A stretch of DNA of 26,376 nt, from the IMG/VR virus record IMGVR_UViG_3300028666_000375, positions 1 through 26,376 of that record. The stretch is one strand, 5' to 3'. Below are positions 3-16,327 of this stretch, in pieces. A program made the translations under genes and the position numbers. The notes below the pieces were generated by a model. The model was not told where the DNA came from, searched no databases, and was given only the letters and a program-made list of their open reading frames with translations. How positions within the stretch are numbered: the first letter of the stretch is position 1; every line of letters begins with the position of its first letter. This DNA is from a virus.

Positions 3-1127
3 TTGGCTGCTTTTATACAAAATGCTCAAAAACAAATAGCAAGTAATAAAATGGCAGTCAGTCCACAGCAAATAGGAGATATTAAACAACAAGTTACTGA
101 CAAATTAGCTAAACTTGACGGTATTTCAGCAGCACCGACATCAGATCCAACAACAGTAGCAGCAGACGCAACAAAGAAAATGGATAATGCTGAAGCATCT
201 ACACCAGGAGTTCCAGCAACAGGACCAACTAAACCATTAGAAGCTCCAAATGGAACTCAACAACCAGTAGGAGTAGCAGGAACACCTATCAATGGAACAT
301 CTACTGGAACAGGACTTGCCGGAGCTTATGCTGATGCGTTAAAACCATCAACAGGAGTAACACAGACAGAACCAGAAGAACAGCCGTTACCTATAACTCA
401 AACAACTACGGGACTTCCAGCCACATCAAATACAGTAACAGGTAAAGAAGGATTAACAGTAGAAGCACAGCCATCTTCAGCTACAACAGAACAACCGTTA
501 TTTAATAACGAGATAACAAGTGACAGTTTACTTCCATCAGCGCAGCAAAAGTATACTCAAAATCCTGCATTTAAGCCACCGTTTAGTAAGAGAAGTGAAT
601 CAGATTTTGCTAATCCACCAATGCCACCTGAACAAGCATTACAACCTAACGAATTAGGCACAGATAATGCCATATTCAACAATCCACAAGGAAACACACC
701 TGTAGTTAATCCAGTGACTAATCAAGTTAAGCAAGTTCCACCAGTTACAGGACTTCAAGGACAAAAGCCAGTAGTTAATTTACAGACACCACAAGTTCAA
801 CAAAAGGGCATAATTCCAACAACACCAGCAACAGCCCCAGCAATGCCTAAACCAATTGTTCCACAAGTTCCACAATTTGACCCAAATCAACCTCACGCAC
901 TAATACCAGAAGAATTAGGCGATTTAGATATGAATGACCCAAAAGCTGTATCGGCAGAAGATTTAGCAAGATTTAGTGCTACACAGAATGCTAGTAGAAC
1001 TACCCCTGACATGACTACATCTGAGGTACCTTCATTAGACCAAGCCAGAGTAAAGTCAAAAGCAGATTTAGGTAAGTGGAACTCATATATGAAGACAGCT
1101 CAACAAAACGCTGGGTTAAGACCATAA
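3..1127 (+). CDS. Pro/Thr/Ala/Gln-rich protein, 5' end outside window
   Basis: The frame is open to the left edge, so the true start probably lies upstream and this is a C-terminal portion of at least 374 residues. The sequence is low complexity and rich in Pro, Thr, Ala and Gln, with many short TTPAT- or PQVPQ-like stretches, no cysteine, no membrane segment and no catalytic motif. Such composition fits an extended, disordered linker or structural/virion-associated protein, but no family is recognised. It is followed 27 bases later by an acidic protein on the same strand, with which it probably forms an operon. Confidence 0.7.
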   Translation: MAAFIQNAQKQIASNKMAVSPQQIGDIKQQVTDKLAKLDGISAAPTSDPTTVAADATKKMDNAEASTPGVPATGPTKPLEAPNGTQQPVGVAGTPINGTSTGTGLAGAYADALKPSTGVTQTEPEEQPLPITQTTTGLPATSNTVTGKEGLTVEAQPSSATTEQPLFNNEITSDSLLPSAQQKYTQNPAFKPPFSKRSESDFANPPMPPEQALQPNELGTDNAIFNNPQGNTPVVNPVTNQVKQVPPVTGLQGQKPVVNLQTPQVQQKGIIPTTPATAPAMPKPIVPQVPQFDPNQPHALIPEELGDLDMNDPKAVSAEDLARFSATQNASRTTPDMTTSEVPSLDQARVKSKADLGKWNSYMKTAQQNAGLRP

Positions 1128-1154
1128 TTAAGTAGTATAACCGAAAGATGTAAC

Positions 1155-2036
1155 ATGATTGATAAGACCGAAACATTTTCTTTTACTTTCTTATACAGGA
1201 GTGATAATGAAAAGGTTATACTAATTAAACAAGGCGAGATACCAGCTAAATCAGAAGATGAGGCAGATACTGTATTAACTTCATCAAATCCAGATGATGT
1301 TTCCGCTATTGACGGTATTGTATCTAAAATAACTCCATTTAATGATGCTGAACCAGGGAGTGAACCAACTATTACAGAAACTCTTCAAGAATTAGAAGAT
1401 AAATATAATATCTCTCTTGAAGAATTAGAAGAAGAAACTGGTGAAGATTTAGATGGTGATAATGAGCATATGGAACATGACGAACATATTGAAAAAGCAT
1501 TAGACAACCCAGATATGGAAAACGAGCATGAAGAGTATTCGTTAACTGATCCGTTAGCTATGATGCCAGAACATAAAAATAAGTATACCAATCCAGATTC
1601 ATTTTTAGAAGAAGATGATGGATATGAAGATGTGTTTAGTTCGCCAGAAATAGCCGTAGAAGACGAGGAAGTATTAGAGGAAGGCGCTAAACCAGAAGAA
1701 GCAATCAGTGCCTTTATACGTGAAACTACGCCAGGGAAAGACTACTATGCCAAAGAAGTTAACGACATATTTTCAAATCTACGTATATTTGATAGTTATG
1801 CCAAATTAGCTATTCTTCGTAGACTTCCTGCTACTGGTAATATAACAGTTATGCGTGATGAAAGTGGCACAGCTTGCTTAATGCGAACTGAAGGTGGTAT
1901 GCCAAATGCTCACGTACATGTTGATGAGAAAATACTCCAAGAACTTGTAAATCCATCTGGCTTAACTCCTGATATTTCATCTGAAGTTAGAGATGGCGCT
2001 GGAAGAATGGCTCGACCAAAGTTTATGAGATACTAA
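1155..2036 (+). CDS. Acidic protein of unknown function
   Basis: A 293-residue protein starting at ATG with a GAAAG ribosome binding site seven bases upstream. Residues about 80-190 are strongly acidic (runs of E and D, with EHDEH-like stretches) and probably disordered. The last ~100 residues, from SAFIRETTPGKDYYAKEV onward, look like a folded domain (NLRIFDSYAKLAILRRLP, then NAHVHVDEKILQELV). No family is recognised. The neighbour upstream is also low complexity, so the pair may be structural or scaffold-like, but this is inference. Confidence 0.75.
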   Translation: MIDKTETFSFTFLYRSDNEKVILIKQGEIPAKSEDEADTVLTSSNPDDVSAIDGIVSKITPFNDAEPGSEPTITETLQELEDKYNISLEELEEETGEDLDGDNEHMEHDEHIEKALDNPDMENEHEEYSLTDPLAMMPEHKNKYTNPDSFLEEDDGYEDVFSSPEIAVEDEEVLEEGAKPEEAISAFIRETTPGKDYYAKEVNDIFSNLRIFDSYAKLAILRRLPATGNITVMRDESGTACLMRTEGGMPNAHVHVDEKILQELVNPSGLTPDISSEVRDGAGRMARPKFMRY

Positions 2037-2039
2037 TTT

Positions 2040-2246
2040 GTGATAAAAGTATTAGATATTCTTGAAGGTGAGATATTTGAATTGCCTGAACAATCTAATT
2101 ATTTTGGCAATGAACTTTTAGAGTTATGCAGAAAATATCCAGGTGCTTGGGAATTATTAAAAACTGGAAAAATGTATAACTATAATACTAAAATATTAGA
2201 AATAAGCAAGATAAAAGAAGATTTAAGGTTTGAGGTATTAACATGA
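2040..2246 (+). CDS. Small protein, probable divergent member of the array family
   Basis: A 68-residue product starting at GTG four bases after the previous stop. It opens with IKVLDILEGEIFEL and ends with LRFEVLT, the same arrangement as the YRILxIxTG...FEIVEV family that fills the opposite strand, so it is probably a divergent relative and the only one on this strand. As in that family, its FEV codons (TTT GAG GTA) supply a GAGG ribosome binding site for the next gene, and its TGA stop overlaps that gene's ATG. The start is less certain because no strong ribosome binding site precedes it. Confidence 0.65.
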   Translation: MIKVLDILEGEIFELPEQSNYFGNELLELCRKYPGAWELLKTGKMYNYNTKILEISKIKEDLRFEVLT

Positions 2247-2329
2247 AATCATTTTTTGGAGGTATTTGGTTCTTACTTTATGCTATTTACGCTATTATTT
2301 TTCACAAAGACATAGAGTTATTTAAATAA
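2243..2329 (+). CDS. 28-residue single-pass membrane peptide
   Basis: A very short gene starting at an ATGA overlap with the previous stop, with GAGG seven bases upstream. The product opens MKSFFGGIWFLLYAIYAIIF and closes with a charged HKDIELFK tail. About 17 hydrophobic residues in the middle could span a membrane once. The convincing translational coupling is the main reason to call it real. It could be a small lysis-accessory, superinfection-exclusion or signalling peptide, but nothing in the sequence decides this. Confidence 0.6.
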   Translation: MKSFFGGIWFLLYAIYAIIFHKDIELFK

Positions 2330-2419
2330 AGATAACTAACCAAAATTAACCTAATTATTACAAACACAAGAATATGAACCATTCATAAAAGTGTGTTAAA
2401 ATCAAAAAAAACAAAAAAA
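2330..2419. other. Short AT-rich non-coding gap between converging operons
   Basis: About 90 bases between the membrane peptide stop and the shared terminator. It is AT-rich with no convincing reading frame. No clear promoter is visible, which is expected between converging transcription units. Confidence 0.5.
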
Positions 2420-2448
2420 ATCCCAGAAGATTTTTAGTCTCCTGGGAT
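2420..2448. terminator. Bidirectional intrinsic terminator
   Basis: ATCCCAG pairs with CTGGGAT, extended past one A/C mismatch by AGA with TCT, around a seven-base loop. An A-run lies to the left and a T-rich stretch to the right, so the hairpin can terminate transcripts from either side. It sits exactly where the + strand operon and the long - strand operon converge. Confidence 0.85.
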
Positions 2449-2457
2449 CTTCTTTTA

Positions 2458-2883
2458 CTATATGTTTTTATTATTAATTGAAAAAGTATCTACAATGTTT
2501 AACCCATAAGCTTTGATAACTTCTTCCTTACTTACTGGTATATAATCAAATTCACAAAACTGACAATCTGGATAAATCTTTTGTAATTCTTTTAGATTGG
2601 TGTGAATAAACCCCTTACAAGCTTTTAATGTTAGAACAATTGGACAAGATTTATAGTAGTTATTAAAATAGGTAGGGTATACAACCTTGGTATCTTCTCT
2701 TAATCGTCTTTTTCTTTTAACAGTAGCTTCGAGCATTTTTTTACTGCCATTACCACTACAATCGCGATACAATATCTCGCCTGTCAAAAGATGTAAAATC
2801 TTATAAAAGTCATTAGATAAGAACTTTTCAGCTTTTTTATTAGTTATAATTAGCTGCGATACCTCTGAATACTCGTCCCGCAT
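2458..2883 (-). CDS. Array-family protein with N-terminal extension
   Basis: A 141-residue product. Residues 26-39 read FYKILHLLTGEILY, matching the usual N-terminal signature of the array family, but here it is preceded by 25 extra residues (MRDEYSEVSQLIITNKKAEK...). The start is supported by GGAG and by the preceding gene ending five bases upstream. The middle is basic (KRKRRLRED) and a CEFDYIPV stretch near residue 110 may correspond to the usual C-terminal strand, followed by a 25-residue tail. It is the last gene before the terminator. Function unknown. Confidence 0.75.
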   Translation of the reverse strand: MRDEYSEVSQLIITNKKAEKFLSNDFYKILHLLTGEILYRDCSGNGSKKMLEATVKRKRRLREDTKVVYPTYFNNYYKSCPIVLTLKACKGFIHTNLKELQKIYPDCQFCEFDYIPVSKEEVIKAYGLNIVDTFSINNKNI

Positions 2884-2887
2884 ATTA

Positions 2888-3163
2888 CTACTCCACTAAT
2901 TCAAACTCAACTGGATCAAAATCTATTTCCGAATAGTTTAACTTTGTTCTCATATCTTTTTTATTTCTTTTAATCTGTTCCCACTTTTCTTCTGTAACTC
3001 TGTCAGTAAACACAGTATGGAAATCTCTATCCCAATTACCTTGTTTATTTTTATAGATACTAAATATTTTTTGAGTGTATTCAAAATTTTCTAAAATATG
3101 TATGATAGTATATTTGTTATCCATAAAACACATGGATGCTGTTGGTATATGTAATAATTTCAT
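2888..3163 (-). CDS. Array-family small protein (MKLLHIPT type)
   Basis: A 91-residue protein starting MKLLHIPTASMCFMD and ending DPVEFELVE. The GEY part of the signature is replaced by ASM. The start codon overlaps the stop of the polymerase gene (TAATG), and the polymerase tail codons contain GAGG as ribosome binding site. The middle is rich in Lys, Asp and Trp (TEEKWEQIKRNKKDM). It sits away from the main arrays, so relatives are dispersed as well as tandem. Confidence 0.85.
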   Translation of the reverse strand: MKLLHIPTASMCFMDNKYTIIHILENFEYTQKIFSIYKNKQGNWDRDFHTVFTDRVTEEKWEQIKRNKKDMRTKLNYSEIDFDPVEFELVE

Positions 3164-4458
3164 TAGTCATCCTCATCAGCTGCTTCTTCTTCCTCAAATC
3201 CCATAGCCTCGTCATACTCATCTTTTGTACATTCATTTACTGCTAACATGTAATCTTCTGGATTGTGTACACCGTCAATCCCTAAATCTTCACATAACTT
3301 TTCAAAATACTCTTCTTTCGAGAGTTTGACCTTCTTTAAGTAAGTTTCATCCATTTCCAAACTTGAACTCTTAATGATAAGTTTGAACTTCTTTTTCTTG
3401 TCAATATCTAACGAAGCGTCAAGTTTTTCAAGTAATAGTGCTTTCTTGTCTGGTGAATGTCTCCACTCATCTCGTTCAATTTCTGCTACCCACTCATACG
3501 AAAATCCAACTTCAAGACTTGTACGATAGTTAACTGGGTCACCGTCATACTTAACTTGATTTTCCATAATATCACGAAGTTTGTCAATTACATCAGCAGC
3601 ATCGTCAATATGTACAGCAAATACAATCGAGTCGTGAATCCAGAAATACATGGTAGCTCGTTTACCTGCTGTTTTTAACCAATTCTTGAATTTACATGCC
3701 GCTAACGAACACATATCGGTTGCTGTACTTTGAATGGGAGTATTTTTACAAGTTTTATACTCATTTCTTAATGACCAATACTCACCATCATGTTTAAGTT
3801 TAGATATAGTCTTCTTATCTTCTTCCACTAATGCTTTGTAGGCATCCATTCTTCCTTGAACTTTTGATGTGGCTCTACGTCTGCCAAATGGAGTTTCAAT
3901 ATATCCAGTTTTAATGGCATTTAGGAATGTTGTTTCCTGCCATGGCTTAACTTTTGGATATAAATTATAGAAACCATTGATGAGTTTTAATGCTTCTTCG
4001 TAAGGGATACGTAAATCCATTGCTATTTTCTCTGGCCCTGCTCCGTAAGTTAGAGCAAAGTTAGTAGATTTAGTGGATTTACGCTTATTCATGAAGTCTT
4101 TTAGTTGTGCTTTAAGACTATCATATTCTTCTGTATATTCTTTGGCAAGTTTTAACGATGCTTCTAATGTTTCATAGTCAATACCATAAATCTTTTTTGT
4201 AGTTTCTTTGTGAATATCTTTGCCTGAATTAACCGTGGCAATCATATTTGTATCGCCAGAAATAGAGGCCAATACGTATAATTCCAACTGGCTGTAGTCG
4301 GCGTTCACAATAATCCAGTCTTTTTTGAGCGATAAGAAACTATCATACTCTTTTTGAAGTTCTGGATTATCTTTAAGAACACTACGCCAGTCTATCCCCA
4401 ACTTATCTAAACTGTTGAAGGATAGACTGTCTAATTTATTAACAATTGCTTCGGTCAT
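3163..4458 (-). CDS. Family-A DNA polymerase, C-terminal catalytic half
   Basis: A 431-residue protein with the fingers and palm of a PolA/T7-type polymerase and no exonuclease. Motif A is DYSQLELYVLA (metal-binding D54), motif B is RKSTKSTNFALTYG (R126, K130, F134, Y138) and motif C is IHDSIVFAV (H275, D276). Compared with the usual DYSQIELR and HDE, the arginine of motif A is Tyr and the glutamate of motif C is Ser. The N-terminal ~45 residues before motif A and ~100 residues after the palm (ending in an acidic EEEEAADEDD tail) are extra. The exonuclease and thumb half is encoded separately at 8257-10080, so a working enzyme needs both. Motif order and spacing make the family assignment firm. 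Confidence 0.93.
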   Translation of the reverse strand: MTEAIVNKLDSLSFNSLDKLGIDWRSVLKDNPELQKEYDSFLSLKKDWIIVNADYSQLELYVLASISGDTNMIATVNSGKDIHKETTKKIYGIDYETLEASLKLAKEYTEEYDSLKAQLKDFMNKRKSTKSTNFALTYGAGPEKIAMDLRIPYEEALKLINGFYNLYPKVKPWQETTFLNAIKTGYIETPFGRRRATSKVQGRMDAYKALVEEDKKTISKLKHDGEYWSLRNEYKTCKNTPIQSTATDMCSLAACKFKNWLKTAGKRATMYFWIHDSIVFAVHIDDAADVIDKLRDIMENQVKYDGDPVNYRTSLEVGFSYEWVAEIERDEWRHSPDKKALLLEKLDASLDIDKKKKFKLIIKSSSLEMDETYLKKVKLSKEEYFEKLCEDLGIDGVHNPEDYMLAVNECTKDEYDEAMGFEEEEAADEDD

Positions 4459-4715
4459 TACTTATCATCTTTTAGAAATAATACCTCTTCTAACTCTTTA
4501 ATGGATGCTTCTAATTCTATAATACTTTCTTGGAGAGAACTTGCTGATGTATTTGACAAATCTAATGATAAATCTGTTAAATTGCCAGTCAAATTGTCTT
4601 GTAGATTTTCTAATGCGTCAATAGAGTGTAAAATTAGTTTATAATCAGGATGTAAAGTCCCGATATACTTCTTACTATCAATCATTTGTTGTAATTCATC
4701 AGTTCTGTTAGACAT
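4458..4715 (-). CDS. Small coiled-coil-like protein of unknown function
   Basis: An 85-residue acidic, Leu- and Ser-rich protein. Residues ~30-85 (ALENLQDNLTGNLTDLSLDL, then a Glu-rich helix) look helical with heptad-like leucines. It overlaps the sigma gene upstream by 34 bases, and its stop overlaps the start of the polymerase half (TAATG), so it is translationally coupled to both. It could help bring the polymerase halves together or act with the sigma factor, but no family is recognised. Confidence 0.7.
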   Translation of the reverse strand: MSNRTDELQQMIDSKKYIGTLHPDYKLILHSIDALENLQDNLTGNLTDLSLDLSNTSASSLQESIIELEASIKELEEVLFLKDDK

Positions 4716-5374
4716 ATTGCTTCATCTTTCCTAAAACATTCTTTATGTATCTGGCTTACGCGACTTTCAGTGATACCAAGTTCAGCACCAATGTCATACA
4801 GGTTCTGTTCAAGGAAGTAGTGGTTATTAATGATATACTGTTCGCGTTCAGTAAGAGGACAACGTTTCATGATAGATTTAACAGTTTCTAATGCTTCGAT
4901 GTTTGTATATTTGTCTGTGGTATCCTCAACATCGAACGTTGTTTCTTGCTCACTATTATTATCGGAAATAATTCCAAATTGATGAATAACCGTCGAACGT
5001 TTTACCGCAGTATCAATCTGGTCTTGATTTAGTGTATCTGAACTAAATGTATTATCATCAGCATTGTGAGTAATAAGTTTTAGACTGGCTCTGGTTGACC
5101 TTGAAACGGTATCTTCCCCACGCAGGTAATCAAGTAACGCACCTTTTACCCGATAATAGGAAAAAGTTTTAAATGAGGCGCCAGTAGACTTATCGTAATT
5201 ATTCCAGCATTCGAGAAGAGCAACCATACCAGCCTGCCTTAATTCTTCCTTCAAGGTAGGTTGAATTGCTTTTGCTCCAGACTTACGAGCTGTATTATAA
5301 ATCTTATTTACCGTAATTTCTACAACTTCATAATATTTTTCAATTCCTTCGTAGCTTCGTACTTCGTTTTCCAT
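4682..5374 (-). CDS. FliA-like (sigma-70 family) RNA polymerase sigma factor
   Basis: A protein of 230 residues when started at the ATG at 5374, which has AGGAA six bases upstream; the longer open frame up to 5431 would run into the preceding gene and lacks such a site. Residues ~40-88 match region 2, which binds core polymerase and the -10 element (LKEELRQAGMVALLECW, then FKTFSYYRVKGALLDYLRG). Residues ~174-216 match the region 4 helix-turn-helix (LTEREQYIINNHYFLEQNLY, then IGAELGITESRVSQIHKECF). It should redirect host RNA polymerase to phage promoters. Its place between the two polymerase halves is unusual. Confidence 0.92.
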   Translation of the reverse strand: MENEVRSYEGIEKYYEVVEITVNKIYNTARKSGAKAIQPTLKEELRQAGMVALLECWNNYDKSTGASFKTFSYYRVKGALLDYLRGEDTVSRSTRASLKLITHNADDNTFSSDTLNQDQIDTAVKRSTVIHQFGIISDNNSEQETTFDVEDTTDKYTNIEALETVKSIMKRCPLTEREQYIINNHYFLEQNLYDIGAELGITESRVSQIHKECFRKDEAICLTELMNYNK

Positions 5375-5384
5375 TAGGTTCCTA

Positions 5385-5996
5385 TTAGTTGTTATTGTTA
5401 TTAATAATCCAGATTTTACTAGTGGAAGCAATACCAGTAGTCATTGCCCTACCATATAATATAAGATTATAATCTTCAAGAGCTGTTAATTCTTCTTGTG
5501 TGTATTTACCGCTATTTTTAGCTCTTTTTAAAGCAGCTTGTTTATTATTAATTTCTTCAAACTCTTGCCGTTGAAGTTCCATAGTTGAAAATACTACTGG
5601 CATGATAATATCTTTACCGTATCCTCTATGTGCTACTCCATTCGAATACTCACACATATAAAAGGCATTACGTTTAAATAAACCACTATTAAGCATTACA
5701 GTTTTACCAGACTTTACTTCAATTTCTATAAGAGTATCAAAAACGTCTTTCACTCTGAAATCAGGAAAAGATTGAGTACCATTTGGTTGGAATATAAAAT
5801 TACCTATTTTAGGAATCTCATTAGTTTCAATTGGTATCTGTTCTACAAATCCTTCTTCTTGTAAGATTTTTGTTATAACATTTTCAGTATTATTTTCATT
5901 ATTTTTATTTGAAGGATTTATATTCTTTTTTAAAAATAGAGATTTACCTGAATTAGCTAATTTTAATTTTTCGGTTAATTCCTCTACTGTTGACAT
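5385..5996 (-). CDS. PD-(D/E)XK nuclease, probable type II restriction enzyme
   Basis: A 203-residue protein with P78-D79 followed 13 residues later by E93-V-K95 (FPDFRVKD...IEIEVKSGK), the metal-binding signature of PD-(D/E)XK endonucleases. The following MLNSGLFKRNAFYMCEY is the kind of post-catalytic strand seen in restriction enzymes. The gene begins inside the end of an adenine methyltransferase gene (13-base overlap), the typical arrangement of a restriction-modification pair. It ends in a low-complexity run of Asn. The recognition site cannot be read from the sequence, and a solitary degradative nuclease remains possible. Confidence 0.72.
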   Translation of the reverse strand: MSTVEELTEKLKLANSGKSLFLKKNINPSNKNNENNTENVITKILQEEGFVEQIPIETNEIPKIGNFIFQPNGTQSFPDFRVKDVFDTLIEIEVKSGKTVMLNSGLFKRNAFYMCEYSNGVAHRGYGKDIIMPVVFSTMELQRQEFEEINNKQAALKRAKNSGKYTQEELTALEDYNLILYGRAMTTGIASTSKIWIINNNNN

Positions 5997-6865
5997 ATTT
6001 TATTATATTCCTCAACAACATCAGCCTTCCCAAATCCTGGGATGCCACTATTTTTTAATGAAAGTTTTACAAAATCTAATGCTTTTAATTTTTCTAAAAT
6101 TAAAATATCTTTTGCCTTAAAAAATATCCATTGTTGTTTTTTATCACACTGTTCTTTTGAATATGCTTTAAAAGTATAATCAAGATATCCCTGTCTAGGA
6201 ACAGCAAAATCCCAGTCGTAATCAAAAAACTTTTCGGCTTCTGTTGTTCTATTATATTGATACAATTTAAAATCTGAATGTTCTGTTTTAGGTTTTTCTG
6301 TAATTCGTAAATTAGTTTGAGTCGGTAATAACGACCAAATCTGAAAACAACAACGAAGATTATAATCTTTATCTAATAGAGTAAACGAGTTTTCTGGTAA
6401 ATCTATATCTATTACTAAATTAGCTTCTGGATTAATTTTTGACTGAGCTGACCATTTTCTAAACTGAATTGGTACAATAAATCCAACTATATTTCCTAAT
6501 GTTAAAGATTTATTTATAAATTGTATGGCCAAACTTGCTTTTGTTCCAAAAGGAGGATTCCCAATTGTTATAAATTGTTTTTTACACGCCAATAATATTT
6601 CTTTGGCAGCATTGGACATAATTTTATGAGTTAAAAAATTACGTTTTATTACCTCAGGATGTTCGGGGGCAATATCATATCCTATTTTAGCTTCGTTTAT
6701 TACATCAAGAAATCTACCATTACCGGCGGATGGCTCAATAAAAATAACTGAACTTAATGTTAAGTTTTGTGATAATATATATTGTTTTAATTTTTCATAA
6801 CAGAGTAATGCGGTTATTTCTTTTGTATAGTATTTATCTAATTCTATTGCTTCTTTTCTGTCCAA
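5984..6865 (-). CDS. N6-adenine DNA methyltransferase (gamma-type order)
   Basis: A 293-residue protein. KYYTKE (11-16) is motif X, EPSAGNGRF (44-52) is the SAM-binding motif I, D64 fits motif II and NPPFG (103-107) is the catalytic motif IV of N6-adenine methyltransferases. The order X-I-IV followed by ~150 residues for target recognition is the gamma class. The start is a TTG with AGAGGA upstream, formed by the ERK codons of the preceding gene. The following, overlapping gene is a PD-(D/E)XK nuclease, so this is probably the protective half of a restriction-modification system; an orphan methyltransferase shielding phage DNA is the alternative. Confidence 0.88.
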   Translation of the reverse strand: MDRKEAIELDKYYTKEITALLCYEKLKQYILSQNLTLSSVIFIEPSAGNGRFLDVINEAKIGYDIAPEHPEVIKRNFLTHKIMSNAAKEILLACKKQFITIGNPPFGTKASLAIQFINKSLTLGNIVGFIVPIQFRKWSAQSKINPEANLVIDIDLPENSFTLLDKDYNLRCCFQIWSLLPTQTNLRITEKPKTEHSDFKLYQYNRTTEAEKFFDYDWDFAVPRQGYLDYTFKAYSKEQCDKKQQWIFFKAKDILILEKLKALDFVKLSLKNSGIPGFGKADVVEEYNKICQQ

Positions 6866-6868
6866 AAG

Positions 6869-7132
6869 TTATTTCCTCTCATACTTAATTACATCACCAA
6901 CTATGACTTTCTGACAAACTCCATTAATAAACCATGCTTTATAGCCCGTAATAGCGTCTGTAATGGCTGGTTCGTTATTATCCCTATGAAGGTTGCCATT
7001 AATATACCACGCCTCTAAACCATCTACAACGATAGCTGGGCCATCTACTCTATGAAACTTGCCATTTTCTGTATGTTCTTCTCTAATAACTTCTTTTTGT
7101 TGTGGTGTTTTATATTTTTTATATTGTACCAT
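6869..7132 (-). CDS. WxxNGxxHR-repeat (MORN-like) small protein
   Basis: Started at the ATG at 7132, directly after the preceding stop and with GTGGAG upstream, this is an 87-residue protein; the longer open frame to 7243 only overlaps the neighbour. It contains about two and a half copies of a short repeat: HTENGKFHRVDGPA (20-33), WYINGNLHRDNNEPA (42-56) and WFINGVCQK (67-75). Such NGxxHRxDGPA repeats are common in phage and bacterial proteins resembling MORN repeats and probably form stacked beta-hairpins. The function is unknown. Confidence 0.78.
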   Translation of the reverse strand: MVQYKKYKTPQQKEVIREEHTENGKFHRVDGPAIVVDGLEAWYINGNLHRDNNEPAITDAITGYKAWFINGVCQKVIVGDVIKYERK

Positions 7133-7133
7133 A

Positions 7134-7400
7134 TTACTCCACCAATTCAAATTCATCAGGAGATATATTCCATCCTTTATTAAGTTCTTGTTTAAAGACA
7201 TGGTCGCCATACACAATAGTAGAGCCTTTATATTCTGTATCAAAGATAGCTGTATATTTTTTACTCCAAAGTGTTTTCCAGCATTCTTTTGTTATATCAG
7301 AAGCCCATTGTTCGTTATTTGAACCACAAGCAATAGCACTATTATAAGGATTTGCTATATAGCGACAAAATTGACCAGATGGTATATGTAGTATTCTCAT
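7134..7400 (-). CDS. Array-family small protein (MRILHIPSGQF type)
   Basis: An 88-residue protein with MRILHIPSGQFCRYI at the start and DEFELVE at the end. The first ~25 bases of the gene are nearly identical to those of the distant paralog at 14618-14872 (they share CCAGATGGTATATG and flanks in the + strand), pointing to recent duplication or recombination. The codons for the final VE give GTGGAG as ribosome binding site for the next gene. The middle contains a KECWKTLWSKKYTAIF stretch resembling the one in the next paralog (RQFWDRIWSEGRIKTF). Confidence 0.87.
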   Translation of the reverse strand: MRILHIPSGQFCRYIANPYNSAIACGSNNEQWASDITKECWKTLWSKKYTAIFDTEYKGSTIVYGDHVFKQELNKGWNISPDEFELVE

Positions 7401-7404
7401 TATA

Positions 7405-7635
7405 TTACTCCATCAATTCAAATTCTGTTTTATCTAACTTATAGGTAAGAATTTTTTTATCATAAAAAGTTTTAATTCTTCCCTCACTCCATATTCTGTC
7501 CCAAAATTGTCTTGAAACATTAGTTTTAGGAAGACCCCAATGGTCATCAACACCAGAAATATCCAGTAACCATTCGTCGGAACCTATTGGAGCTAATGTA
7601 CAGAATGTTCCCTCTAATATACATAGCATTCTCAT
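7405..7635 (-). CDS. Array-family small protein (MRMLCILEGTF type)
   Basis: A 76-residue protein starting MRMLCILEGTFCTLAP and ending TEFELME. GGAG, read from the YGD codons of the upstream gene, lies seven bases before the ATG. The body aligns loosely with the downstream neighbour around an aromatic (F/C)W...W stretch followed by FEL(V/M)E, so these two are probably a local duplication. Confidence 0.83.
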   Translation of the reverse strand: MRMLCILEGTFCTLAPIGSDEWLLDISGVDDHWGLPKTNVSRQFWDRIWSEGRIKTFYDKKILTYKLDKTEFELME

Positions 7636-7637
7636 AG

Positions 7638-8282
7638 CTAATCTCCATATAAACAGAAATGTAGATATCTAACTACATCTTCTTTAAGTTTAGTGGTCGA
7701 TTGAATGTTTGAATTAGGAATAATGTTAGTCATAACCATATCTGACATATCTGTTATAATTTCTGTTAATATATCATCAACACTATCAAACTCTAAAATG
7801 CCTAATCCAACTGCTTCTGTTAATTGTTTAATTGCTGAACCTGGACTTAAATAAAACTTAAATGTTCCGTCATATTTCTCAAAACTTAACATACATTGTA
7901 GCCCAGTATCCCCAACATTTACATCTAATTGTTCATCGTTTAATAATAGTATTTTAGTTTCATCATAATCGTTAAACTCTGATGTTTGTATATATGTTTT
8001 TATATCTTGTTCTATGTTATCTCTGTATAACAAATTATCTATTCGTTTCTTACTTCTACCTGCCTTACTTTTTACTTGTTTATATGCTAACATAATCATG
8101 GCATGTTTATATTCAGATAACAGCTCTTCCTTATTTGAAAGAATGGCTGCTACCTGAACATTATGCTTCAATAATGCATAATTCAAAAATCCTTTATCAG
8201 GAGTAAATGAATATGCGTTAAACGTGTATGATAAGTTAGAATACTTGCTTGGTTTACTAAACTGAATCGTCATCCTCGTCAT
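7638..8282 (-). CDS. Protein of unknown function, coupled to polymerase half
   Basis: A 214-residue protein whose start overlaps the end of the polymerase exonuclease half by 26 bases. It has no cysteine-rich or catalytic motif that I can recognise. Residues ~60-85 are basic and helical (AYKQVKSKAGRSKKRIDNLL), with mixed beta-like stretches after (GLQCMLSFEKYDGTFKFYLS). The position right after the N-terminal polymerase half suggests a replication role, but this is only context. Two ATGs lie three codons apart, so the exact start is uncertain. Confidence 0.72.
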   Translation of the reverse strand: MTRMTIQFSKPSKYSNLSYTFNAYSFTPDKGFLNYALLKHNVQVAAILSNKEELLSEYKHAMIMLAYKQVKSKAGRSKKRIDNLLYRDNIEQDIKTYIQTSEFNDYDETKILLLNDEQLDVNVGDTGLQCMLSFEKYDGTFKFYLSPGSAIKQLTEAVGLGILEFDSVDDILTEIITDMSDMVMTNIIPNSNIQSTTKLKEDVVRYLHFCLYGD

Positions 8283-10080
8283 CCCCAGTCTTTTTAGATG
8301 CTTTGGCTGGCTTTATCTGTAATGACACGTCAAAAACTAACGCATTATTTACTTTTTGCCGGTCTGTTTCCGATAACTTTGCTACAATCTTATCATATAA
8401 AATGTTTTCTGCTTGTGAAACAACATTAGGACAAAAGTATTGTTTAACCATACTTCCTTGTGCTGGTAGTGTTAAAATAGGCCCGCCTTTTTTCTTTTGT
8501 CCATTATGATTTGTGAAATTAGTACTACCTAATCTCGCTGTTCTGTTAGTTTGTCTATATTGCGAGTTAAGTGTCCAATGTCCAACACATTTATATTGTC
8601 TTGAACCCTCGTTTAACGTGCCAACATACCCACGATAAGAATATGTAGAATATAACTTTAATAACTTTTTAAGTTTTGATAACTTAAAGATAAACGGATG
8701 AAATAAAATCAAATCATCAAGAGCTTTTTGGTCTGTGCTTGGTGCTTTCTTTGGAGTTCTATGAAAAATTGGAAGATTAAGTTTATTTTCATTAAAAAGA
8801 ATATCTCCTAATTGCTTTGATGATACTATATTAAACGTATCTTTATCATCAATATACTTATCAATTAGTTTCAATCCATCTTTATGTGTTTCTACAATTT
8901 GCTTCTCGTATTCAAGTTTAGAAGCTAAAAATCTATCTCTTGATAATATATAACCTTCACATGCCAATTCATTCGCTGTAAGAATAACCTTATGTGGAAC
9001 CTTATAATAGAAGTTCCATAAAGATTTAGCCATATTCTTTTTTAAGAAATTGATAAGTCTTACAACAGCAAGAGCATCCATTGAACTATAAGGAGAAATT
9101 ATTTCCAACGGAACATCTTCATAACCGTATGTCTTATTACCTAATGCTTCTTTTGCTGCCTTCCCTTTTGCTTCTTTCTTTTTCTTTGAAAAGATTTTAG
9201 TTTGTTCTTCAAGCCAATCTTTAATAGGATCTTTATACGCTGGCAAATTAATAAGATGTGTATTTTCTTTAAGAGCCGCAGATTTATTAGCATGATGAAA
9301 CAAGTTAAGTAAAATCATAGTATCAGCCATAAAGTTCTTTGGCTGTCTACCATCGAACAATTCGTGTAAAACTAACAGATCATACGCAGCATTGTGAATG
9401 AACATTGGCTGTGTTGAATTAAAGAATATCTCTTCTGAATACTTGAATAATGTTTCTTTTGTAAATGTACACTTTCCAGAAGCAATTAACGCGTCAGAAG
9501 CAGGAATACACCATGCCTCATCTTCGTCAGATAACCAAGCCAAGGAATAGCAGAGTAATTTTGGTGCTGGGTCTTTGATGAACGGATTAAGAAAATTGGT
9601 TTCAGTATCAAATCCACATGGTTCTTTCATACATCTGTCTCGAAGATATATTAGGTCTTCTTCGGTAGTAGCAGTATACAATTTTTGCGGTCTACTTTTA
9701 ACCAAATCAATTTCGGCAATTTTCTTTTTTAATACATCAAAGTGCTCACCATACATATACTTATCAGTGTAAAATAACTCATTTACACTATGATTATCTA
9801 TTACAATCGGTATTACTTTATCTTTAATGTTAACTGTATCGCCTATCTCTGGAAAAAATCCGCCAAGTTCAAGTCCGTAATGAAAAATAATATCCGGATT
9901 AAACTCATATATTTCATTACTTATCTCTTCCGTTAGTTCAGAAGAAATAAACATTTTGGTTTCTAAACTACAACTTGGCGGGTTCGGGACAAACTCGTTT
10001 AATAGTCTTAATGGTTTACTATCTCGTAATTCAGGTTGCCCATGAACCAAGATAGCAACATTTACTGTGTTAGTTTTCAT
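8257..10080 (-). CDS. Family-A DNA polymerase, N-terminal half (3'-5' exonuclease and thumb)
   Basis: A 607-residue protein with a DnaQ-like proofreading exonuclease: Exo I FDTET (D158, E160), Exo II HNAAYD (D234) and Exo III YSSMD (Y331, D335). It then continues through the thumb to the polymerase motif NRTARLGSTN (512-521) and VKQYFCPN (545-552), which in intact enzymes stands just before motif A. It stops there, adding ~55 residues (LYDKIVAKLSETDRQKVNNA, acidic DDEDDD tail) not seen in ordinary PolA. Motifs A, B and C are in the separate gene at 3163-4458. About 150 residues precede the exonuclease and are unassigned. Confidence 0.92.
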   Translation of the reverse strand: MKTNTVNVAILVHGQPELRDSKPLRLLNEFVPNPPSCSLETKMFISSELTEEISNEIYEFNPDIIFHYGLELGGFFPEIGDTVNIKDKVIPIVIDNHSVNELFYTDKYMYGEHFDVLKKKIAEIDLVKSRPQKLYTATTEEDLIYLRDRCMKEPCGFDTETNFLNPFIKDPAPKLLCYSLAWLSDEDEAWCIPASDALIASGKCTFTKETLFKYSEEIFFNSTQPMFIHNAAYDLLVLHELFDGRQPKNFMADTMILLNLFHHANKSAALKENTHLINLPAYKDPIKDWLEEQTKIFSKKKKEAKGKAAKEALGNKTYGYEDVPLEIISPYSSMDALAVVRLINFLKKNMAKSLWNFYYKVPHKVILTANELACEGYILSRDRFLASKLEYEKQIVETHKDGLKLIDKYIDDKDTFNIVSSKQLGDILFNENKLNLPIFHRTPKKAPSTDQKALDDLILFHPFIFKLSKLKKLLKLYSTYSYRGYVGTLNEGSRQYKCVGHWTLNSQYRQTNRTARLGSTNFTNHNGQKKKGGPILTLPAQGSMVKQYFCPNVVSQAENILYDKIVAKLSETDRQKVNNALVFDVSLQIKPAKASKKTGDDEDDDSV

Positions 10081-10369
10081 CTAAAACTTTCATACGGTTA
10101 GCTATATACCATTTACCGCCTTGGGCAATGGGTCTATTAATTTCCACATAATCCTCAATTTCAACCTTAACCCAAATCCTACCAGTCATAGATAAATGAG
10201 GAGCTTTTGGTTGGGCGGTTGTGTGCCAGCCTTTACGTGGAGCAAATCCTTTTGTTTCGTGTAATTCAGCCTGATACCATACATTACGTTTCAATCTTAA
10301 TTTTTTGTTAATAAATAATGGGGCAATATCACCATTTTTGAGCAATCTAAAAAGCTTATAAGCAATCAT
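10070..10369 (-). CDS. Small conserved phage-type protein of unknown function
   Basis: A 99-residue basic protein: MIAYKLFRLLKNGDIAPLFI, then KGFAPRKGWHTTAQPKAPHL, then GRIWVKVEIEDYVEINRP and GGKWYIANRMKVLDE. From memory, sequences with this LFIN...GWH...APHL...W..VEI layout recur in phages as uncharacterised proteins; I cannot name a family. It overlaps the start of the exonuclease half of the polymerase by 11 bases, suggesting coupled expression with replication genes. Confidence 0.8.
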   Translation of the reverse strand: MIAYKLFRLLKNGDIAPLFINKKLRLKRNVWYQAELHETKGFAPRKGWHTTAQPKAPHLSMTGRIWVKVEIEDYVEINRPIAQGGKWYIANRMKVLDEN

Positions 10370-10372
10370 GTA

Positions 10373-10723
10373 TTAAACAACCTTATCTACGGTAAACTGA
10401 ATAATGCTTGCTTCAATTACTTCTGAAAGTTTAATGTTTGGATTTTCTTTTGAAAGTTCAGCAAATACAGTAGTTATAACCTTGCGGGCATCATCCTCAC
10501 TCATGTATCTTACAAGGCGTTCGAGATACGGTTTATATACTTCTCTTGGGAGAAAATCGCTAACAGGGTCATCAGAAGCACACTCTGAATTAGCATAGGC
10601 TTTTGTAGCGGTAGTATTAATTAGAGGTTGATTTGAATATTTTGCTGCTTGTGCCTTATTAAATGCTGTCTGTGGCTTAAACACTACTTCTGATTGATCT
10701 TTCATAAACGGAATTCTTGCCAT
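10373..10723 (-). CDS. Protein of unknown function
   Basis: A 116-residue protein with a clear ATG and AGGAG about eight bases upstream, one of the better ribosome binding sites in the block. The first ~55 residues are polar and probably disordered, and the rest looks helical (REVYKPYLERLVRYMSEDDA, then KVITTVFAELSKENP). No motif is recognised. It follows the ligase after a 44-base gap, so it may begin a new transcript. Confidence 0.75.
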   Translation of the reverse strand: MARIPFMKDQSEVVFKPQTAFNKAQAAKYSNQPLINTTATKAYANSECASDDPVSDFLPREVYKPYLERLVRYMSEDDARKVITTVFAELSKENPNIKLSEVIEASIIQFTVDKVV

Positions 10724-10767
10724 ATTTTTACTCCTGATATATAGTATCGTATTAATATATATTAAAA
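10724..10767 (-). promoter_or_regulatory. AT-rich gap with 14-base palindrome and AGGAG site
   Basis: One of the few real gaps in the - strand operon. It contains the perfect palindrome TTAATATATATTAA (10752-10765) just after the ligase stop, then a strong AGGAG for the next gene. The palindrome could be a protein-binding operator or part of a promoter read by the phage sigma factor. No convincing -35 element is visible, so promoter activity is speculative. Confidence 0.3.
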
Positions 10768-11688
10768 TTAGTCCATATCGTCATCTGCGCGAAGTCCAAG
10801 CCATACTGGATGCCTTGGCTTATCTTTAACACCAACAGCAAAATACTTATATTTGAAAATAGAGTTCAGATATTTAGCTTGGTTATCCCAGATTTCTCTT
10901 CTCATTTCGTCGTTCAACCCAGAGCCAACACGAAGTTCTACACCTGTATATATATCAACTGCTACAATAGTTCCTAATGTTCCCTTACCAACCATGTCAT
11001 CTTTCTTTGAGGTCTTTTCTTTAAGCCCCAAAGCGTTTATAGTTGAAGCAGCGGTGTTCTCCATAAGCTCTTCAAAACCTGTAATTCTGGCTTCGCTATC
11101 ACTAAACCTCTTTAATTTCAATAGATAGCCTTCTTTATTTGTGCTTCTACCGAGTTTATACGGCCCACTATCAGACCTAATAATAATACCTTCAAATCCC
11201 TTATTCAAACATTCTTCTTCAAAATCTAGTAGTTCTTGTTTATTATTAAGTTTTTTAGGAAGCAGTTTAACAATACGCGGATCGTTAAACGTTATGCTTT
11301 CTAATAGTTCCATACGTTTTTCATAAGAAACTGTCAAATCGTCTTCAATTACATCAAAGATATAATAGATAAACTCTGGCTGACCATCAAATGACATAAT
11401 ATTGTGTGTAGATTCCTGAAAATTGAAATCTTTACTTGACACAATCTCGCCATCGAACTCTCCGGAAAAAATTTCAGAGTTTTTCGAAGCCAAACACAAA
11501 CTCTTTTCTAACTCGTTGCGGATGTATGTGTTAGGTATCTTTTTCAGTTTCCTACTTTTCACTAATTTATCCAAAAACAAGCAGCGAATACCGTCAAGTT
11601 TCGGTGTGCCATATACTGGATATTTAATGTTGTCAGTATCTTCTGGACTTAACGTGGCAGCTAACATGGGTCTTGTAATTTTACTCAT
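10768..11688 (-). CDS. ATP-dependent DNA ligase
   Basis: A 306-residue protein, close to the size of T7-type ligases. Motif I is TPKLDGIR with the nucleotidylated lysine K30, motif III region GEFDGEIV (76-83), motif IV EGIIIRS (166-172) and motif V LLKLKRF (189-195). The C-terminal part (EARITGFEELM, then GTLGTIVAVDIYTGVELRVG, ending PRHPVWLGLR) is an OB-fold like that of phage ligases. It seals nicks during phage replication or recombination. The start has GAGG about ten bases upstream, provided by the EV codons of the preceding array gene. Confidence 0.95.
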   Translation of the reverse strand: MSKITRPMLAATLSPEDTDNIKYPVYGTPKLDGIRCLFLDKLVKSRKLKKIPNTYIRNELEKSLCLASKNSEIFSGEFDGEIVSSKDFNFQESTHNIMSFDGQPEFIYYIFDVIEDDLTVSYEKRMELLESITFNDPRIVKLLPKKLNNKQELLDFEEECLNKGFEGIIIRSDSGPYKLGRSTNKEGYLLKLKRFSDSEARITGFEELMENTAASTINALGLKEKTSKKDDMVGKGTLGTIVAVDIYTGVELRVGSGLNDEMRREIWDNQAKYLNSIFKYKYFAVGVKDKPRHPVWLGLRADDDMD

Positions 11689-11690
11689 TT

Positions 11691-11948
11691 TTATTTTACC
11701 TCTATGATTTCAAATAGTTCTTGATGATATTTTAAGTAAATTGGTGTGTTACTATCTAAATATATTAAATAAGCACAGTTTAATATACTCTCACAATCTA
11801 TGCGTGATGTAGTTTCTAATATATCACCATAGAAATAACTTATATGTTTATCATATTCAGAAAAAGGAAAGGTTTGTTTATTACTATGTCTGTTGGTAAT
11901 ATATAAATACGTCCCATTTTCTATACATAATATCCTGTATTTACTCAT
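11691..11948 (-). CDS. Array-family small protein (YRILCIENGTYLY)
   Basis: An 85-residue protein starting MSKYRILCIENGTYLYITN and ending LFEIIEVK. It is the last gene of the second array, and its GAG GTA codons provide the ribosome binding site for DNA ligase. The middle is acidic and Tyr-rich (SEYDKHISYFYGDIL). Its ATGAGTAA start overlaps the upstream stop by eight bases. Confidence 0.87.
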   Translation of the reverse strand: MSKYRILCIENGTYLYITNRHSNKQTFPFSEYDKHISYFYGDILETTSRIDCESILNCAYLIYLDSNTPIYLKYHQELFEIIEVK

Positions 11949-12192
11949 CAGGGACCTCTATTATCTCAAATAATATTGGATTTTGTGTCATATTAAGTCT
12001 AATTCCATTTCCTAAAAACAAATATTCATGACGCATTTCGTTTATTACTTTTTGTATCATACTAACATGTGGTCTTTCAAATATTTTAAACTCGTTTCTA
12101 CTGCACTTAACTTCCCAACCTGTATAAAGAAAACTGCCATGTAAGCTTTCATATAAATATTCACCAGTCTCAATTATAAGTACTCTATACAT
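11941..12192 (-). CDS. Array-family small protein (YRVLIIETGEYLY)
   Basis: An 83-residue protein, MYRVLIIETGEYLYESLHGS at the start and LFEIIEVPDE at the end. The PDE tail is the out-of-frame reading of the next gene's ATG AGT AA. The middle (GWEVKCSRNEFKIFERPHVS) resembles paralogs that place a short 'F-K-I-F/Y-E' strand halfway through. The start overlaps the upstream stop by one base. Confidence 0.88.
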   Translation of the reverse strand: MYRVLIIETGEYLYESLHGSFLYTGWEVKCSRNEFKIFERPHVSMIQKVINEMRHEYLFLGNGIRLNMTQNPILFEIIEVPDE

Positions 12193-12470
12193 TAAGGAAC
12201 CTCTACAACTTCAAATATAGCAAGGTTATCTTTCATATGTATTACAGTATACGAGTCATTAAACGGAATGCGTATAGTATTTTCGTTTCTAATATTTCTT
12301 GCTAAAAATATTTCAGCACGTTCTTTTGACTGAACTTCATAGATATTATACACAGTAAAATCAGCATGTTCCAGCTCTAATTTAGAAAATAGGCTTGCGA
12401 ACTCATCTAAACCATATCTGCTGTATAAATATTCCCCAGTTTCTATACATAATATCCTGTAGTTACTCAT
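12192..12470 (-). CDS. Array-family small protein (YRILCIETGEYLYSRYG)
   Basis: A 92-residue protein. Its start (MSNYRILCIETGEYLYSR) and middle (LELEHADFTVYNIYEVQSKE) closely parallel the paralog at 13590-13874 (SVTELADADFLIYKVFETSS), and both share an NTIRIP stretch near the C-terminus. The two are therefore a recognisable duplicated pair within the array. It ends in IFEVVEVP. Confidence 0.88.
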   Translation of the reverse strand: MSNYRILCIETGEYLYSRYGLDEFASLFSKLELEHADFTVYNIYEVQSKERAEIFLARNIRNENTIRIPFNDSYTVIHMKDNLAIFEVVEVP

Positions 12471-12720
12471 ATGAAACCTTTATTATCTCAAACGCAGCGA
12501 GATTTTCAGTGCGAAAGTCTGCGTAACCGTTTCCACAACTTATTAGATAACCACAACGCAAGTAGTCTAAAGCGTCTTTACTACTATCAAATAGTCTAAT
12601 TTTTATTTCAATTTTTTCTTTATCTACATTTTCTAATTCATAACAGGAATACGGAGCAATTCCATTCATGCTATAAAGAAAATCACCACTCTCAATAAAT
12701 ACTATGCCCCATTTACTCAT
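12463..12720 (-). CDS. Array-family small protein (WGIVFIESGDFLY)
   Basis: An 85-residue protein starting MSKWGIVFIESGDFLYSMNG and ending AFEIIKVSYE. Here the usual EV is KV, so the ribosome binding site for the next gene is weaker (AAGGTTT rather than GAGGTT). The SYE tail is again the reading of the next ATG AGT AA in another frame. The middle has an EIKIRLFDSSKDALDYL stretch. Confidence 0.85.
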   Translation of the reverse strand: MSKWGIVFIESGDFLYSMNGIAPYSCYELENVDKEKIEIKIRLFDSSKDALDYLRCGYLISCGNGYADFRTENLAAFEIIKVSYE

Positions 12721-12730
12721 CAGGAACCTC
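12712..12730. repeat. Junction repeat, copy 1 (TTTACTCATCAGGAACCTC)
   Basis: A 19-base element joining two array genes. On the - strand it encodes EVPDE and the stop of one gene, the GAGG ribosome binding site, and the ATG AGT AAA of the next. Identical copies lie at 13155-13173 and 13866-13884, and near-copies at 13333-13351, 11941-11958 and 14059-14074. Confidence 0.8.
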
Positions 12731-12910
12731 TATTATTTCAAATTTTTCTTTGTTTTCTTTGAGAACAATACTGACAATTTCGTTATTATAATCATAGTAA
12801 TTAAACACTCATTTAGCCGGACTATCTTCATCAAAATATTTTTCTAATTCACTTCTATATTTTTTATAATCTACATATATTCCTTCTTCGATGTACAATA
12901 ATTTATACAT
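12713..12910 (-). pseudogene. Array-family gene interrupted by an in-frame TGA
   Basis: Reading from the ATG at 12910 gives MYKLLYIEEGIYVDYKK, then a TGA at codon 34 (12809-12811), and the same frame then continues VFNYYDYNNEIVSIVLKENK and ends KFEIIEVPDE at the normal junction. The start has GAGG upstream and the flanking junctions are intact. The simplest reading is a nonsense mutation in a 65-residue paralog (for example from TGG, giving AKW). Readthrough is possible but TGA is used as a normal stop elsewhere in the window. A sequencing error would give the same picture. Confidence 0.8.
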
Positions 12911-13163
12911 CCGGAACCTCTACAAGTTCAAAAAGTTCAGGATTTTTTCCAACACATATCCAACCGTAAATGCTACGTATGGAGTTTCTTATACCATGTT
13001 CTTCAAATCTTATCAAAATATTTTCTTTACTATCTTCATATATAGGAAAGTCTGATTTATCGGAAGCATTTACAATCTCTAATTCTGAATATATTTGTTC
13101 TTTATCTATATCTGTATGTAAAAATTCTCCAAATTCTATATAAAGTATTCTATATTTACTCAT
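12903..13163 (-). CDS. Array-family small protein (YRILYIEFGEFLH)
   Basis: An 86-residue acidic protein starting MSKYRILYIEFGEFLHTDID and ending LFELVEVPDV. The PDV tail comes from reading the next gene's ATG TAT AA (the broken paralog) in the other frame. The middle has SDFPIYEDSKENILIRFEE, a pattern of short strand then helix seen in several paralogs. Confidence 0.88.
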   Translation of the reverse strand: MSKYRILYIEFGEFLHTDIDKEQIYSELEIVNASDKSDFPIYEDSKENILIRFEEHGIRNSIRSIYGWICVGKNPELFELVEVPDV

Positions 13164-13173
13164 CAGGAACCTC
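13155..13173. repeat. Junction repeat, copy 2
   Basis: An exact 19-base copy of the junction element at 12712-12730, at the boundary between two array genes. The shared bases cover the C-terminal codons, the ribosome binding site and the next start. Confidence 0.8.
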
Positions 13174-13341
13174 TACTATTTCGAACCTTATTCTATTTTC
13201 TTTGAACATTATAAGCTCATTATTTTTCCAAAAACACCATCCATTATCTTTTGAAAAGAGTTCTTCTAAATGTTCTTTTGTAGTATATCTTGTTTTTATA
13301 TATTCGCCATCTTCTATGAACAATAATTTATATTTACTCAT
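13156..13341 (-). CDS. Array-family small protein, shortest intact member
   Basis: Started at the ATG at 13341 (ATG AGT AAA, with GGGG about six bases upstream) this is 61 residues: MSKYKLLFIEDGEYIKTRYT, a short middle (LFSKDNGWCFWKNNELIMFK) and RFEIVEVPDE. The open frame extends four codons upstream, but those belong to the previous gene's tail. It is the smallest intact paralog and so gives a view of the minimal fold: N-terminal signature, one helix or hairpin, C-terminal strand. Its middle resembles the broken paralog just downstream. Confidence 0.85.
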   Translation of the reverse strand: MSKYKLLFIEDGEYIKTRYTTKEHLEELFSKDNGWCFWKNNELIMFKENRIRFEIVEVPDE

Positions 13342-13597
13342 CAGGAACCCCAACTATCTCAAAGATTTCTGGGAATTGCAGTCTATCTATTTTTTTATCT
13401 GAAAATAATCTATATTGTTGGTCGCCATGCTCTACCCGTTTATAAGCTATTTTAATATCATTTGTTTCGTATATTTTACAGCTTTCTTTGTCAATTCCAT
13501 AAAAGCCTATCTCGTATGGAGAATATAAAGATCCCATATTTTTTCGTTCAAGCAAAAATTCACCAGTCTCAATTATAAGTATCCTGTATTTACTCAT
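13334..13597 (-). CDS. Array-family small protein (YRILIIETGEFLLERK)
   Basis: Started at the ATG at 13597 rather than the upstream TTG-type frame at 13618, since all neighbours use ATG AGT AAA at this junction. The 87-residue product starts MSKYRILIIETGEFLLERKN and ends IFEIVGVPDE. The usual EV is GV (GGGGTT), which still leaves a G-rich ribosome binding site for the next gene. The middle contains SPYEIGFYGIDKESCKIYET, similar in layout to the paralog at 12463-12720. Confidence 0.86.
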   Translation of the reverse strand: MSKYRILIIETGEFLLERKNMGSLYSPYEIGFYGIDKESCKIYETNDIKIAYKRVEHGDQQYRLFSDKKIDRLQFPEIFEIVGVPDE

Positions 13598-13874
13598 CTG
13601 AAATCTCCACAATTTCAAATATACTGAGGTTATTTTTAATTAAGATAACCTCATGCTTATTACCATTTGGAATGCGTATTGTATTACATTGTGTTGCGTT
13701 ATTGTTGAAATACATAGTAGCCTCGTATTTGGAAGACGTTTCAAATACTTTATATATAAGAAAATCAGCATCGGCTAACTCTGTAACTGAATACAAGAAA
13801 GGAAATCGCGACCCTCCTTCTCTGCTATATAAGTAATCACCAGTTTCTACACAAAGTATTCTATATTTACTCAT
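13590..13874 (-). CDS. Array-family small protein (YRILCVETGDYLYSREG)
   Basis: Started at the ATG at 13874, giving 94 residues: MSKYRILCVETGDYLYSREG, a middle with LADADFLIYKVFETSSKYEA and NTIRIPNGNKHEVILIKNN, and the end IFEIVEISDE. It is clearly related along its whole length to the gene at 12192-12470. The ISDE tail overlaps the next start. GAGG precedes its own ATG inside the upstream gene's EVPDE codons. Confidence 0.88.
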   Translation of the reverse strand: MSKYRILCVETGDYLYSREGGSRFPFLYSVTELADADFLIYKVFETSSKYEATMYFNNNATQCNTIRIPNGNKHEVILIKNNLSIFEIVEISDE

Positions 13875-13884
13875 CAGGAACCTC
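13866..13884. repeat. Junction repeat, copy 3
   Basis: The third exact copy of the 19-base junction element, again at a stop/start overlap between array genes. Three identical copies within about 1.2 kb, in genes whose middles differ, point to recombination or strong constraint at the seam. Confidence 0.8.
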
Positions 13885-14296: not shown

Positions 14297-14298
14297 AG

Positions 14299-14613: not shown

Positions 14614-14617
14614 TATG

Positions 14618-16326: not shown

Positions 16327-16327
16327 G

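What the first reader, a model, noticed from the sequence alone, without database searches (positions are those of the whole stretch)
3163..10080. Family-A DNA polymerase split just before motif A, halves 3.8 kb apart
The 607-residue gene carries Exo I-III and the thumb up to the TARLGS and QYFCPN motifs; the 431-residue gene starts ~53 residues before motif A DYSQLE and carries motifs A, B and C. Both broken ends carry extra segments not found in ordinary PolA (N-half tail LYDKIVAKLSETDRQKVNN, C-half head AIVNKLDSLSFNSLDKLG) that look alike and could be a mutual docking pair. Eight genes lie between the halves, including a sigma factor and a probable restriction-modification pair. No intein residues are seen at either end.
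Basis: partly seen in the sequence, partly recalled or inferred. Interest (0 to 1): 0.78.

Follow-up and report, generated by a model that had tools for sequence, protein, structure and literature searches.

The report
Phage DNA polymerase in two genes
A bacterial virus makes its family-A DNA polymerase as two separate proteins cut at a hairpin just before the catalytic site; the cut is old, both halves are still under selection, and an unrelated group of phages has cut the same enzyme at the same spot, so it is a new case of a known but little-studied kind of split enzyme.

Summary
The window is a phage record (26.4 kb fragment). One gene (8257-10080, minus strand) encodes the 3'-5' exonuclease, thumb and first palm strand of a family-A polymerase. 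A second (3163-4458, minus strand) encodes the rest of the palm and the fingers, with motifs A, B and C. The two models tile the same solved polymerases (Bst Pol I 297-644 and about 645-876). A sister lineage (four contigs, 72%/61% identical) has the same split with different genes between the halves, including a LAGLIDADG endonuclease gene. Both halves are under purifying selection. The nearest unsplit polymerases lack the extra segments at the break. No intron or intein was found. The most likely mechanism is non-covalent assembly of two subunits into one Klenow-like enzyme. The claim that the two extra segments 'look alike' fails against shuffles, although both are predicted helical. The kind is not new: MEP401-type phages split PolA at the same hairpin, and one (ct2os315) has its halves 3.6 kb apart. 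A tree indicates the two splits arose independently, so one hairpin has been broken at least twice. A second polymerase cannot be excluded, because the genome is incomplete.

The parts
8257..10080 (-). N-half of family-A DNA polymerase (607 aa): N-terminal extension, 3'-5' exonuclease, thumb, first palm strand up to VKQYFCPN, C-terminal tail
   Evidence: Pfam exo and PF00476 positions 21-93; model aligns to Bst Pol I 297-644 and Klenow 324-697, Z about 20-21
9601..9609 (-). Exo I motif DTE (D158, E160)
   Evidence: nearly invariant in 33-sequence alignment
9379..9381 (-). Exo II aspartate D234
   Evidence: nearly invariant
9076..9090 (-). Exo III motif Y331-D335
   Evidence: nearly invariant
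8260..8424 (-). Extra C-terminal tail of the N-half (residues 553-607): two predicted helices, then an acidic end
   Evidence: absent from the nearest unsplit polymerases; ENILYDKIVAKLS identical in sister lineage; helices 552-567 and 571-581 at pLDDT about 72-80
3163..4458 (-). C-half of family-A DNA polymerase (431 aa): catalytic palm, fingers, C-terminal extension
   Evidence: PF00476 positions 144-376, 2.5e-48; model aligns to Bst Pol I 630-876, Z 26.7, rmsd 1.7 over 246 residues
4321..4458 (-). Extra N-terminal head of the C-half (residues 1-46)
   Evidence: LSFNSLDKLGIDWRSV identical in sister lineage while the whole C-half is 61% identical; helical but low confidence
4282..4299 (-). Motif A DYSQLE
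   Evidence: invariant D54 Y55 S56 Q57 E59
4045..4083 (-). Motif B R126...K130...F134...Y138
   Evidence: alignment to Taq and phage polymerases
3631..3636 (-). Motif C HD (H275 D276)
   Evidence: invariant
4458..8282 (-). Eight genes between the halves: 214, 76, 88, 124, 293 (methyltransferase), 203, 249 (sigma factor) and 85 aa
   Evidence: ORFs, families; order differs in the sister lineage

Best explanation
The phage polymerase is an obligate two-subunit enzyme. The 607-aa protein supplies exonuclease, thumb and the first strand of a palm beta-hairpin. The 431-aa protein supplies the second strand with the motif A aspartate, the rest of the palm and the fingers. The two chains meet at the hairpin turn (Klenow about 697-700) and refold into one Klenow-like active site without splicing; the hairpin strands, the thumb-palm contacts and the added helical tail and head probably hold them together. 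Shown: two separate complete genes, complementary fold coverage, conserved catalytic residues, purifying selection, and the same split in a sister lineage. Inferred: physical assembly, activity, and docking by the extra segments. Less certain (about 0.4): the break arose from insertion of a homing endonuclease gene at the hairpin, later lost or moved in the window's lineage.
For: Pfam and fold matches tile one polymerase: N-half Bst 297-644, C-half from about 645 to 876. Catalytic residues of both activities are kept. Sister lineage: same split, 72% and 61% identity, dN 0.21 and 0.33 against near-saturated dS. 76 of 80 nearest viral-contig polymerase loci run unbroken through motif A (a few are cut by the contig edge upstream); the only four split ones are the sister lineage. 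N-half palm stretch 490-545 is modelled poorly without its partner. A LAGLIDADG gene overlaps the C-half start in the sister lineage. Split PolB 43A/43B of Aeromonas phage 25 co-purifies and is active, and split NrdA of Aeh1 is active (PMC2988022).
Against: No co-fold or experiment. The head is modelled at low confidence (pLDDT 44-61). Neither tail nor head resembles the LAGLIDADG protein, so endonuclease origin is circumstantial, and the window's lineage has no endonuclease gene between the halves. Motif C reads HDS where Klenow has HDE, though some unsplit phage polymerases (L004) share this. The genome is a fragment, so an intact second polymerase could exist.
Confidence: 0.82

Rival explanations
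1. The two halves are exons of one gene interrupted by a self-splicing intron or joined by trans-splicing, so one polypeptide is made, as in intron-interrupted phage polymerases.
For: Introns with endonuclease genes commonly interrupt phage polymerase genes; in Listeria phage P70 the break is inside motif A.
Against: No Rfam intron at gathering or at E 1 in the window interval or sister interval; note that Rfam also found none in P70, so this test is weak alone. The N-half has its own stop after a conserved tail and the C-half its own start and conserved head, so joining the reading frames would insert about 100 residues absent from unsplit relatives. Eight genes lie between, and their order has changed between lineages.
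Confidence: 0.05
2. A split intein ligates the two halves after translation.
For: Split inteins occur in some phage polymerase genes (MIJ3 PolB, PMC6892783).
Against: No Hint or intein Pfam match in either half; the extra segments are 55 and 46 residues, without recognisable intein blocks.
Confidence: 0.02
3. The split polymerase is a decaying remnant and the phage replicates with another polymerase.
For: Genome incomplete, so another polymerase cannot be excluded.
Against: Both halves open, catalytic residues kept, purifying selection over large divergence; no PolB or PolIII alpha, and no second PolA, in six contigs.
Confidence: 0.07
4. The halves work separately: the N-half as a free exonuclease or DNA-binding protein, the C-half as something else.
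For: Stand-alone family-A-type exonucleases exist (7r0t ExnV1 matches the N-half exo domain).
Against: The N-half keeps the thumb and the palm strand with the RLGS arginine R516, invariant, which has no evident use in a free exonuclease; the C-half has no thumb to hold primer-template.
Confidence: 0.04

Closest known systems
MEP401/MEP402-type split PolA of OM43 phages, and kin QDWS535, ctOsX528, ct2os315
   Same: Family-A polymerase in two genes cut at the same palm hairpin just before motif A; N-half has exo and the first part of PF00476, C-half the rest. In ct2os315 the halves are 3.6 kb and seven genes apart, a methyltransferase gene among them.
   Different: Independent origin by tree (starred branches force two changes, AU p 0.017). 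There the C-half begins 5 residues before the motif A Asp and neither end has a long extra segment (QDWS535 has a short N-half tail); here 53 residues precede it and the N-half carries a 55-residue tail.
Split PolB gp43A/43B of Aeromonas phages 25 and 44RR
   Same: A replicative phage polymerase in two genes, with an endonuclease gene at the break in phage 25; subunits co-purify and are active (PMC2988022).
   Different: Family B, not family A, so the break site is not comparable.
Split NrdA of Aeromonas phage Aeh1 (mobE insertion)
   Same: An enzyme broken by a homing endonuclease gene that works as two chains (PMC2988022).
   Different: Ribonucleotide reductase, not a polymerase.
PolA of phage G20c (7r0k) and Klenow/Bst Pol I
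   Same: Fold and catalytic residues of both halves together.
   Different: Single chain, with no tail or head at the hairpin.

Membership tests
Family-A DNA polymerase | PF00476 over the curated cut-off, with motifs A, B and C | tested here: met
   shared between the two proteins
Family-A DNA polymerase | 3'-5' exonuclease residues of the proofreading class | tested here: met
   D158, E160, D234, Y331, D335
Family-A DNA polymerase | DNA polymerase activity | not testable with these tools
   needs expression and assay
MEP401-type split PolA | PolA in two genes broken in the hairpin before motif A | tested here: met
   beside
MEP401-type split PolA | Shared descent of the split | tested here: not met
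   tree forces two origins, AU p 0.017
Endonuclease-split gene (Aeh1 nrdA, phage 25 gene 43) | Endonuclease gene at the break | tested here: inconclusive
   present in the sister lineage next to the C-half, absent between the halves in the window
Endonuclease-split gene (Aeh1 nrdA, phage 25 gene 43) | Subunits assemble into an active enzyme | not testable with these tools
   needs co-purification
Intron-interrupted polymerase gene | Self-splicing intron between the parts, flanking exons that join into an ordinary protein | tested here: not met
   frames do not join without about 100 extra residues and eight genes lie between; no Rfam match, though Rfam also misses P70
Split intein | Intein splicing domain at the broken ends | tested here: not met
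   no Pfam match at the ends

The most novel reading that the evidence does not exclude
The tail and head form a dedicated subunit-docking module evolved after an endonuclease-driven fission, giving a natural two-subunit family-A replicase, and the palm hairpin before motif A is a general, repeatedly used fission point of family-A polymerases in phages.
Probability: 0.4. Interest if true: 0.6.

Novelty: new variant of a known kind. Interest (0 to 1): 0.45.

Why it matters
It is a second, independent case of a family-A polymerase cut at the same turn right beside the catalytic aspartate. That makes the turn a testable natural split site, useful for asking how an active site can be assembled from two chains and for building switchable or split polymerases. 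The tail and head give a concrete hypothesis for how the halves find each other across separate genes.

Tried and rejected
Tail-head similarity: no better than shuffles. Descent of tail or head from the LAGLIDADG protein: no signal. Introns: no Rfam intron match. Second polymerase (PolA, PolB, PolIII alpha) in the window and five related contigs: none; the genome is incomplete. Relatives in bacterial genomes: none. Enterococcus phage GiddyUp 'two polymerases': a frameshift, as the N-part ends in out-of-frame residues. Listeria phage P70: break inside motif A, so intron-type, not comparable. MT835911 hit: a bacterial contig with ordinary PolA. Misassembly: unlikely, because four sister contigs carry the same split, though the link between the window's own two halves rests on this one contig; the identical contig ends at window position 7936, before the C-half. 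Relatives of the sister's LAGLIDADG gene in two other contigs do not lie beside a recognisable relative of this polymerase.

Full report
What is there. The window is a fragment of a phage genome. An identical contig overlaps it from 7936 to 26376 and extends it to about 44 kb. Sister contigs carry myovirus-type genes (baseplate wedge, head-tail adaptor, clamp loader). On the minus strand lie a 607-aa gene (8257-10080) and a 431-aa gene (3163-4458), with eight genes and 3.8 kb between. Pfam places the first on the exonuclease and PF00476 positions 21-93, and the second on PF00476 positions 144-376. PHROG profiles agree.

Complementarity. AlphaFold2 models were built from 32- and 33-sequence alignments of this lineage and phage polymerases. 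The N-half aligns to Bst Pol I 297-644 and Klenow 324-697 (Z about 20-21) and to phage G20c polymerase (Z 22.0). The C-half aligns to Bst 630-876 (Z 26.7, rmsd 1.7 over 246 residues); the part of that range before about 645 is the extra head, not the conserved core. Together they cover one polymerase, with the break at the hairpin turn just before motif A. Catalytic residues of both activities are kept.

Extra segments. The N-half runs 55 residues beyond YFCPN and the C-half begins 46 residues before the conserved strand. Unsplit relatives mostly have zero to about nine residues there. The tail is predicted to form two helices (pLDDT about 72-80); the head is helical at low confidence. ENILYDKIVAKLS in the tail and LSFNSLDKLGIDWRSV in the head are identical in the sister lineage, where the proteins are 72% and 61% identical overall. 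The tail core as a whole (64%) and the head as a whole (65%) are not clearly more conserved than the rest. They do not resemble each other beyond chance. A docking role is plausible but inferred.

Sister lineage. Four contigs have the same split with 1.65 kb between the halves, a LAGLIDADG endonuclease gene directly upstream of and overlapping the C-half start, and a shuffled order of the sigma factor, methyltransferase and neighbouring genes. In three of the contigs (L007, L008, L009) a DUF4379 endonuclease-like gene lies directly upstream of the N-half; the fourth begins too close to it to tell. The split is therefore older than the divergence of the two lineages. dN is 0.21 (N) and 0.33 (C) against near-saturated dS, which indicates purifying selection on both halves.

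Not an intron, not an intein. No Rfam intron matches the interval in either lineage, although Rfam also misses the presumed intron of Listeria phage P70, so the stronger argument is anatomical: the conserved tail, stop, start and head are those of two proteins, and joining the frames would add about 100 residues that unsplit relatives lack. P70 by contrast breaks inside motif A, as an intron would. No intein domain is found.

What is known. Methylophilales phages MEP401 and MEP402 encode PolA in two genes (PMC10580990). Their N-half ends ...FLSRYGE and their C-half begins MILNADAKALEW, so the break is just before motif A. Kin in Alcaligenes phage QDWS535 and spring-water phages share it, and in ct2os315 the halves lie 3.6 kb and seven genes apart, with a cytosine methyltransferase gene between. 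A tree of the polymerase part puts those splits with HMO-2011-type polymerases, which are unsplit, and the window with other phage polymerases. Starred branches force two changes, no bootstrap tree has one, and the AU test gives p 0.017; the group was named after the precedent was found, so the p value is a guide. The same hairpin was thus probably broken twice. Split PolB 43A/43B of Aeromonas phage 25 co-purifies and is active, and split NrdA of Aeh1 is active (PMC2988022), which makes two-chain assembly the natural reading.

Verdict. The kind is known; this is an independent lineage with extra segments at the break. Limits: incomplete genome, no co-folding, and only one contig linking the window's own two halves.

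Noticed in passing
window 2888-25432, minus strand: About 29 paralogues of a small protein (75-125 aa, YRILHIxTGxYLY...FEIVEV), in arrays; the few members tested have no Pfam match; similar arrays are in the sister contigs.
   Followed up: partly
window 20048-20743; L022 1769-2659; L021 15208; L023 8856 and 13219: DUF4379 treble-clef, homing-endonuclease-like genes in several copies in this phage lineage, one directly upstream of the polymerase N-half.
   Followed up: partly
window 17853-18644: GIY-YIG endonuclease gene with NUMOD3 motifs between two helicase genes.
   Followed up: no
window 5984-6865 and 5385-5996: Type II-like methyltransferase (PADLOC MTase_II 4e-53; 50% identical to jumbo phages XbC2 and Kaldavass) beside a 203-aa protein with a PD...EVK pattern but no named family.
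   Followed up: partly
L124 (MW202796) 6923-7633 and 11232-12392: Deposited phage ct2os315 has MEP401-type PolA halves 3.6 kb apart, annotated only as two 'DNA polymerase' genes.
   Followed up: yes
L111 (PV544172) 993-3343: Enterococcus phage GiddyUp's two DNA polymerase genes look like a frameshifted single gene.
   Followed up: yes
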